From: Apostichopus japonicus
Lineage: Eukaryota > Echinodermata > Holothuroidea > Aspidochirotida > Stichopodidae
Direction of reading: 5' to 3'
DNA length: 64,000 nucleotides
NCBI RefSeq assembly: GCF_037975245.1
Contig: NC_092565.1
Location: forward strand, 3,772,499 to 3,836,498
Shown: piece by piece, positions 47,428 to 50,400 of the stretch
Position numbering within the stretch: position 1 is the first letter of the stretch
How the letters are laid out: each line of letters starts with the position of its first letter
The notes under the pieces: model-generated
What the model saw: the letters and a program-made list of their open reading frames with translations, nothing else
Database searches by the model: none
Told to the model about the DNA's origin: nothing
Made by a program: the position numbers and the translations under genes

Positions 47428-50400
47428 CTGCGACATACACAAACAAAAGAAAGAAATTGTCTTCAGACCAATAACATAAATAATTTTGAGGACTTCATAT
47501 TGGTTTCAATAATCATTTTTCATCTCTAACTTACGTTAAGGACTTCATATTGGTTTCCACAATCATTTGTCATCTCTAACTTACGTTGAGGACTTCATAT
47601 TGGTCTCCATGATCATTTTTCATCTCTAACTTACGTTAAGGACTTCATATTGGTTCCATAATTATTTTTCATCTCTAGCTAACGTTGAGGACTTCATATT
47701 GGTCTCCATAATCATTTGTCATATCTAACTTACGTTGAGGACTTCATATTGGTCTCCATAATCATTTGTCATATCTAACTTACGTTGAGGACTTCTGAAG
47801 TTTCGATGATGCCGTCCTTATCTTCGTCAAAGGCATCAAAGATCCTCTGAAACTTCTCGGCATCGTTCACTTTGTCAAGCTTCTTCATGGCTTCCACCAA
47901 CTCCTCGACTCGGATAATAGTTTTCCTAGACAAGAGCAGAACCATGCATTGTCAAACTGAGAAAGGGAAAAGCTGCTTCCAGTCGACAATAAACTGCCAC
48001 AGAGTGTAAATCATTCAGCCCATTTTACAAAACAGGGGAGCACAAATTGGACTCAGCAACCTCTGGTGTATTTCGACTAAACCAGTGTAAAACTCTGTAC
48101 CATATTTGTGGAGGGGTGGGGGAGAAAAATGAAATTTGTGAAATCCAATCTAAATGACAAAAACACATTCAACCAAAAGAAACTTTAATGAAGAGATATT
48201 TCACTGCAGTTGACAAGTACGACAGGATAAGGGTACTGAATAAATCGATGACAATTTTTAGGTAATAGATTTCAACTGTTTAATAGAGAAAGGAAATAAA
48301 GAGGCTGTGACCTGCCAGCAGGGGAGAGGAATGGGAGAGGGAGTGGAGAGGGAGGACAGAAGGAGGGGAGAGGGAGGGGAGAGGGAGGACAGAGGGAGGG
48401 GAGAGGGGGGGAGATTGAGGGGAGAGGGAGGGGAGAGGGAGGGGAGATTGAGGGGAGAGGGAGGGGAGAGGGGCAGGGAAGAGCAATCTGAGAGAGGATG
48501 AGGGGGGAGAGAGTAGCAGGGGAGAGGAGAGGTTAAGAGCAGCTGGTCCAGGCTAATAATAATCACAATTGCCTCCTTTTTGCCTTGATGAAGATATAAG
48601 ATTGTTTTGTAAACTTACTTTTTGCTATCAATCCTCTCCTGCATGAGTTCCTCTCTCTCAGCTACGGCCTCAGCATCCACCCCTTCTCCCTCCTTAATGG
48701 TCTCCTTCTCCTGGACTAAGGTATGCTTCTCTACCTCTAGCTCAGAGACGATACTGTCTAACCTGCCCATCATCCTGTTAACCTGTTACGTTTAAAAAAG
48801 AAGACCAAACACTCGACATAAAAAGCATTCTTTCAGCAGCTCGATCTGGACAGAATATTTACAAACAATTTTTCCGAAATGTAAAGAAGTTGTCACTATA
48901 GAGTCATACTTAACGATAGGCTTGTGGTCATTTTCCTTTCATTCTACAGACTGAAAGTATAACAATGAGATCTACAGTTACACAAATGAAAGTGAGTATA
49001 TGGAAAGGCAAGAAGATGTACCTGTTTACTCATTCTAAGGGAAGCCTTAGATTCCGAGAGAGTCCTCAAGTTAGTGTCCTCTTCTTGCTCTTTCTTAAGG
49101 TCCTCCAAATCCTGAAAAGCAAAGAATAAACAGAAATTAGAAAAACCAAAGGCCTTCATTGTCGACACTTTGCTACATCAGGTGATATGAGGTTAGATCG
49201 ATGTGGTCTTCCTTTGTACTTTCTTCATCATTAACCTTGAACTAAGCTTCCCTGATGAGATAAAACTGTTACAGATGCGCAAAGATTTATCGCACACTTG
49301 AAATAAAGAGATGAACCTCAACGTCACGTCCTGCACCCCCCCAACGAGTTAGTTCAATTCGACTGAGAACTCTACATCCCTGCTAACCGATCGAGAATGA
49401 CACTCCTCGTGTCGACACAGAGACAACGTGGCAAGATGTGCAATTTGTTATGCAACAGCGTGCATGAAGCGACGGTGTACAACAGTCAAACATAAATGGC
49501 ACGACACATACACACACCTGCAGTGTTTCTGCTCCCATGATTGCCTCTGTGGTAGAGATCATGTTTCATCCTTCAGCAGTTTTTGTACAAAGAAACAAGA
49601 TTCATATTGTCTGACTGGCTGGGAGTTATTTGCTCTCTTCTTCCTCCTCTACTCCACCTGTCCTACCACCTCCAATCTTTTCCCTTAATTCCCCCATCCC
49701 TCCTCACCCAACCAAAGACATTATCCACTTTTCTATTTATTCTGCTACGTATGCCATTCTTCTCTTAGTAGTCTTCTACCCTGATGCCCTATCCCTTTCC
49801 CAAACCCTTCCCCACACCAGCCGATATTATACATTTTCTGCTTGTCTATTAATTCTACCCAGTAGGCCACCCTTACCTCTTTGTATTCTCCTACATATTC
49901 CCAATCTCTCACCCAACACCTTGACTAACCTGACTCAATCCTATACATTTTCTGCTTGTCTATTTATTCTCCTCAGTAGGCCACCCTTACCTCTTTATAT
50001 TCTTCTACGTCTTGCTTCAGCTCCTCCAAATCTTCCTTCTCCTGCGAGAGTGATTCCTTCTCTTGTGCAATCTTGCTGATCACCTCCCCGATGCCCTGTA
50101 GTTCCTCTTTAGAGACCTCCTCTTCCTGCACAGGACAGATAAAGACATCCTTTAGTGTATATACGACCAGTCAATGAATATTCATATCATGCTAATCAGT
50201 CTACCAAAATCATAAGTGGAGTCTGCAATACCATTTTCTAGTCTAAAATCTGAATTTAGAAAATCAACGGTGAAGTAATTTATTATCCTCAAAGGCATAG
50301 AAAGACCAAGAGCAGAAACCTAAGGTTTCTCCCTCTTTATCTACAATTTTTTATGAATAATAGGATGCTTGTTTTTTAGCAACTAAGAGACTTGCTTCTG

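What the first reader, a model, noticed from the sequence alone, without database searches (positions are those of the whole stretch)
47485..47790. Minisatellite built from the letm1 EF-hand exon's own 5' splice site
Six 50-bp units in the intron repeat the last 12 coding bases of exon 14 plus its donor, so the true donor is followed by a series of decoys, several with an intact GTAAGT. Using a downstream copy would read through the first donor into GTAAGTTAG, an immediate stop just after the EF-hand, removing the C-terminal coiled coil. Donor choice in this gene may therefore depend on repeat number.
Basis: partly seen in the sequence, partly recalled or inferred. Interest (0 to 1): 0.7.

Follow-up and report, generated by a model that had tools for sequence, protein, structure and literature searches.

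The report
Repeated splice donors after letm1 exon
In what looks like a sea cucumber genome, the last 12 coding bases and splice signal of one letm1 exon stand six times in a row; this is real but looks like the genome's ordinary repeat turnover, since other genes there show the same layout at no more than the background rate.

Summary
On the minus strand, letm1's EF-hand exon ends at 47784. Its last 12 coding bases plus 38 intron bases form a 50-bp unit present six times (47497-47795), then an 11-bp remnant. Five decoy donors follow the true one: four GTAAGT, one GTTAGC.

Another letm1 donor (49990) is also duplicated. Three of 91 donors sampled in other genes lie in exon-tail arrays of about 4 to 12 copies. 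Intron positions at fixed distances in those loci give 5-7 of 91, so donors are not hot spots. Decoy donors are not significantly better conserved than the rest of their units. No acceptor was duplicated (0 of 60 sampled, 0 of 14 in letm1), a weak hint of asymmetry. Closest known: the human ABCA7 VNTR and IFI6 minisatellite; in ABCA7 decoy use is about 2% and independent of repeat number. RNA and population data could not be tested. Most likely: a neutral minisatellite, with the exon-proximal donor used in most transcripts. Its best use is as a natural test series for donor competition.

The parts
   Evidence: AG/GT borders and open spliced frame; Pfam EF-hand hits and PDB 9ba1 match
47778..47783 (-). 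true donor GTAAGT, in unit 1
47746..47795 (-). unit 1: 12 coding bases + 38 intron bases
47696..47745 (-). unit 2, identical to unit 1; decoy GTAAGT at 47733
47647..47695 (-). unit 3 (49 bp); weakened decoy GTTAGC at 47683
47597..47646 (-). unit 4; decoy GTAAGT at 47634
47547..47596 (-). unit 5; decoy GTAAGT at 47584
47497..47546 (-). unit 6; decoy GTAAGT at 47534
47486..47496 (-). 11-bp remnant of a seventh unit
   Evidence: the sequence beyond it does not resemble the unit (p 0.93)
47284..47427 (-). last coding exon, C-terminal 47 residues and stop
49942..50008 (-). second case, copy 1: last 18 coding bases of exon 10 plus 49 intron bases beginning with donor GTAAGG at 49990
49828..49894 (-). 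second case, copy 2 (67 bp, 62 identical), decoy GAG|GTAAGG at 49876
49702..49779 (-). second case, diverged copy 3, donor GT lost
   Evidence: score 26.5 against a maximum of 14.5 in 500 shuffles

Best explanation
A minisatellite formed by local tandem duplication of a 50-bp segment that happens to span the exon/intron border (slippage or unequal exchange; inferred). The process is general in this genome and indifferent to the donor. Splicing most likely keeps using the exon-proximal donor in most transcripts, because the full exon with its acceptor and enhancers lies next to it (inferred). Occasional decoy use gives one truncated protein ending in VS. Only the first decoy leaves the stop within about 50 nt of the junction (41 nt); the others (91-240 nt) should be nonsense-mediated decay targets (distances shown, decay inferred from the recalled 50-55 nt rule).
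For: Same anatomy elsewhere: L035 70 bp x 11 with about 62 coding bases; L083 156 bp x 4.3 with 27; L104 62 bp x 12 with 23. Rate at donors 3 of 91 against 5-7 of 91 at each of eight intron offsets and 45 of 728 overall. TRF arrays of period 10 or more are spread along the fetched stretches (32 arrays in 28 of 91 loci). Genome-wide, triplets of AGGTAAGT at minisatellite spacing are no commoner than the reversed motif: 372 against 465 placements. Decoy hexamers 2 of 30 polymorphic columns against 38 of 345 in the rest, p 0.76.
Against: letm1 itself has 2 of 13 donors duplicated where the window rate predicts 0.44 (binomial p 0.07). Donors 5 of 104 against acceptors 0 of 74 hints at asymmetry (p 0.077), though 2 of the 5 are letm1's own, one of them the finding. 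Four of five decoys are intact, and counted per copy the donor bases in most of these arrays change less than the rest. Donors in the sample were predicted, not read from transcripts. No RNA data.
Confidence: 0.75

Rival explanations
1. One reading: repeat number tunes donor choice in letm1, producing a truncated EF-hand isoform or lowering expression by decay.
For: Intact decoys equal the true donor in local sequence (unit 2 identical over 50 bp); all five lead to the same stop. In IFI6 two downstream repeat units are used as donors, as described in PMC4526556 (passage).
Against: Same anatomy at background rate in other genes; no significant extra conservation of decoys; in ABCA7 unit retention does not depend on repeat number (PMC5954066, passages).
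Confidence: 0.12
2. Copy number affects exon inclusion or expression in another way, as in ABCA7, where long alleles raise skipping of the next exon: extra U1 binding or altered RNA folding in the intron, without use of decoys.
For: The ABCA7 VNTR includes the exon 18 donor, and its length correlates with exon 19 skipping and lower expression (PMC5954066, passages).
Against: The letm1 array is short (about 0.3 kb). The downstream exon is the last one that I traced, which cannot be skipped in the ordinary way. No expression data.
Confidence: 0.08
3. Selection or mechanism makes donors tolerant, and acceptors intolerant, of tandem duplication, so donor arrays persist while acceptor arrays are removed. 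This is compatible with the best explanation, not exclusive of it.
For: 0 of 60 sampled plus 0 of 14 letm1 acceptors against 15 of 297 intron controls (p 0.049 pooled).
Against: Small sample; sampled acceptors alone against controls p 0.085; donors against acceptors p 0.077 with letm1, 0.28 without; controls within a locus are not independent; several comparisons were made.
Confidence: 0.3

Closest known systems
Human ABCA7 intron 18 VNTR (PMC5954066, passages seen)
   Same: Intronic tandem repeat flush with an exon, its first two bases being the exon's own donor GT; a downstream unit can be used as donor, with a frameshift.
   Different: 25-bp unit starting at the GT, so without coding bases as described; 23.7 copies in the human reference, one allele of 9,711 bp; length variation and splicing were measured. 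Here: 50-bp unit, 12 coding bases, six copies, nothing measured.
Human IFI6 (6-16, G1P3) minisatellite (Turri et al. 1995, seen only as a title in reference lists of PMC2572611 and PMC4526556; one descriptive sentence in PMC4526556)
   Different: There two downstream repeat units are used, giving three mRNA species that encode isoforms; here use of any decoy would give a stop.

Membership tests
Donor-containing intronic minisatellite (ABCA7/IFI6 kind) | tandem array that includes the exon's own donor | tested here: met
Donor-containing intronic minisatellite (ABCA7/IFI6 kind) | downstream units keep donor-like sequence | tested here: met
   4 of 5 decoys GTAAGT, 1 GTTAGC
Donor-containing intronic minisatellite (ABCA7/IFI6 kind) | downstream units used as donors in mRNA | not testable with these tools
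   no transcript data held
Donor-containing intronic minisatellite (ABCA7/IFI6 kind) | repeat number varies between individuals | not testable with these tools
   one assembly; one match
Splicing switch dependent on repeat number | decoy donors under selection | tested here: inconclusive
   no significant excess conservation by columns, p 0.76, five arrays only, two of them in letm1
letm1 gene | LETM1 ribosome-binding-like domain and C-terminal EF-hand | tested here: met
   three PF07766 matches in the assembly, all at this locus; EF-hand; PDB 9ba1, mitochondrial proton/calcium exchanger protein, E 1.1e-4, among many EF-hand proteins of which calbindin scores best

The most novel reading that the evidence does not exclude
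In this echinoderm a few percent of introns begin with arrays of the exon's own tail and donor, while acceptors are spared. The genome would hold very many natural decoy-donor series in which repeat number sets a low, gene-specific rate of premature termination.
Probability: 0.2. Interest if true: 0.65.

Novelty: new member of a known kind. Interest (0 to 1): 0.4.

Why it matters
As a single case it is ordinary for this genome. As a class, arrays of equal donors in near-identical local context (four intact decoys in letm1, ten in L035, eleven GTAATG in L104) separate donor strength from position and exon context. RNA-seq of this species, where available, could show directly whether the spliceosome takes the exon-proximal or the intron-proximal member of an equal series. 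The base rate also warns against reading function into a donor repeat in a minisatellite-rich genome.

Tried and rejected
Rejected: a device unique to this letm1 exon (other genes and a second letm1 exon share the layout). Rejected: donor motifs are enriched in minisatellites (the reversed-pattern control is higher; counts are overlapping placements, and the listed part is dominated by a few long arrays, so this is only a rough control). Rejected: decoys specially conserved. Counted per copy donors looked conserved, but copies share ancestry, and by polymorphic columns the difference is not significant (left out there: the letm1 11-bp remnant, exon 10's third copy, which has lost its GT, and most of the last L083 copy). 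Rejected: sequence beyond the 11-bp remnant is a degenerate seventh unit. The 133-bp array at 40480-40833 holds CTGTTTCAG; I read it but established no exon there.

Led nowhere: Turri 1995 is not held. Searches for general surveys of repeats across splice borders: searches found no paper, seven and twelve, none of them such a survey by its listing. One search (Apostichopus japonicus with minisatellite) listed two papers, by title neither on this subject. One search printed decoy proteins in a wrong frame; corrected. In one search eight kinase loci were tried as extra donors. Five are minus-strand matches and were apparently read on the wrong strand; the three plus-strand ones (L009, L012, L024) showed no copy (scores 6.0-7.5). 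None was counted.

Selection of the sample: from the matches I took by hand rows without inner stops and with open frames up to about 150 residues, not every qualifying row: 91 exon ends, and the starts of 60 of these exons (frames up to about 100). Three families only. Donors and acceptors were called by simple scores with recalled frequencies; 85 of 91 donors scored 5 or more; 8 of 91 had a stop in the 50 codons before the match end, L083 and L104 among them. Three loci had weaker matches at the donor (L085 18.0, its copy with GT lost; L053 17.5; L092 16.5) and were not counted.

Full report
What is there. The window lies in an unnamed 671,581,487-base assembly of 35 contigs. Its mitochondrial COX1 frame is open under codes 4, 5 and 9 alike; the echinoderm code (9) gives the residues that I would expect, which is my reading. 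Size and scaffold number are close to the Apostichopus japonicus assembly (671.60 Mb, 671,643,915 bases in 34 scaffolds; PMC10344927, passages), so I infer that species or a close one; the totals differ by some 62 kb and no tool gave the name. The gene is letm1 on the minus strand: three matches to the LETM1 domain family, all at this locus, an EF-hand, a match to PDB 9ba1, the mitochondrial proton/calcium exchanger protein, and an open spliced frame over exons 2-14 of the 14 traced. Exons upstream of 58973 were not sought.

The array. The EF-hand exon ends at 47784 and its donor GTAAGT starts at 47783. The last 12 coding bases plus 38 intron bases form a unit of 50 bp present six times, then an 11-bp remnant. 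Four of the five decoy donors are GTAAGT and one is GTTAGC. Units 1 and 2 are identical, the others differ from unit 1 at 3-6 positions. By a simple donor score the intact decoys equal the true donor.

Consequence if a decoy is used. Each decoy gives the protein end [17 protein letters not shown]-stop. The EF loop [12 protein letters not shown] stays whole, but the C-terminal 47 residues, most of the exit helix included, are lost; the 9ba1 match extends nine residues past the exon border. From stop to junction there are 41, 91, 140, 190 and 240 nt for the five decoys, and 306 to 107 nt of intron remain, so splicing from each is plausible. By the recalled 50-55 nt rule only the first would escape nonsense-mediated decay.

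Is it special? In the same gene the donor of exon 10 (49990) is also duplicated, 114 bp downstream, with its last 18 coding bases: 62 of 67 bases are identical, and a third, diverged copy has lost the GT. Across letm1, 2 of 13 donors and 0 of 14 acceptors have a local copy scoring 30 or more within 500 bases; of 2,480 positions along the window, 3.4% have one downstream and 5.4% on either side. I then sampled 91 exon ends of kinases, helicases and AAA proteins (matches; fetched). Three of 91 (95% interval 0.7-9.3%) sit in arrays that include the exon tail and donor: a CDK-like kinase exon (L035, 70 bp x 11), a SNF2-like helicase exon (L083, 156 bp x 4.3) and a DEAD-like helicase exon (L104, 62 bp x 12) (the subfamily names are my reading). 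Read-through of donor 1 meets a stop in each. Eight fixed intron distances in the same loci give 5-7 of 91 each. Donors are thus at or below background (3 of 91 against 45 of 728, p 0.35; positions within a locus are not independent). TRF finds 32 arrays of period 10 or more in 28 of the 91 loci, covering 6.5% of bases and spread over the stretches.

Acceptors. Of 60 sampled acceptors none has an upstream copy at that score, against 15 of 297 intron positions (p 0.085). With letm1, 0 of 74: p 0.049 against controls, 0.077 against donors including letm1's. Scanning positions around the acceptor rather than on it, 2 of 60 loci reach the threshold. This is a lead, not a result.

Selection on decoys. 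Over five arrays, two of them in letm1, the donor hexamer has 2 of 30 polymorphic columns and the rest of the units 38 of 345, p 0.76. Counted per copy, donor bases look quieter in most arrays (for instance none of ten L035 decoys changed), but copies are not independent. The genome-wide triplet search gave 372 placements for the donor motif and 465 for the reversed motif. Neither suggests that decoys are kept or favoured.

Comparison. Human ABCA7 has a VNTR that includes the exon 18 donor; retention of one unit was not affected by VNTR size and, by the order in which the paper lists isoforms, stands at 2 +/- 1%, while exon 19 skipping rises with size (PMC5954066, passages). Human IFI6 has a minisatellite with multiple splice donor sites (Turri 1995, title in reference lists; one descriptive sentence in PMC4526556). 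The letm1 array is of this kind, with coding bases in the unit.

Verdict. A real, neatly anatomical but ordinary product of minisatellite turnover in a repeat-rich genome. Functional dependence of donor choice on repeat number is possible but unsupported. The broader point, that about 3% of sampled donors (3 of 91) lie in arrays of themselves, is the more useful finding and can be checked with RNA-seq.

Noticed in passing
49702-50008: A second letm1 donor (exon 10) is duplicated with its exon tail; TRF does not list it, probably because there are few copies.
   Followed up: yes
L035, L083, L104: Three other genes with arrays of their own exon tail and donor, about 4 to 12 copies.
   Followed up: partly
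47021-47109: 30-bp array after the letm1 stop codon whose units contain donor-like GGTAAGA or GGTGTAAGA.
   Followed up: no
48320-48472: 11-bp pyrimidine-rich array (CCCTCTCCCCT on the gene strand) in the intron before the EF-hand exon.
   Followed up: no
40480-40833: 133-bp array containing acceptor-like CTGTTTCAG; no exon established there.
   Followed up: partly
474-27480: Plus-strand open frames with HYR domains (two tested), ephrin-receptor-like repeats and a sub-threshold EGF match, apparently exons of one or more secreted or membrane genes.
   Followed up: partly
G000 contig C29: Besides the mitochondrial contig C35, this contig has COX1 in four adjoining pieces in order but in broken frames, plus one further partial piece about 15 kb away.
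   Followed up: no
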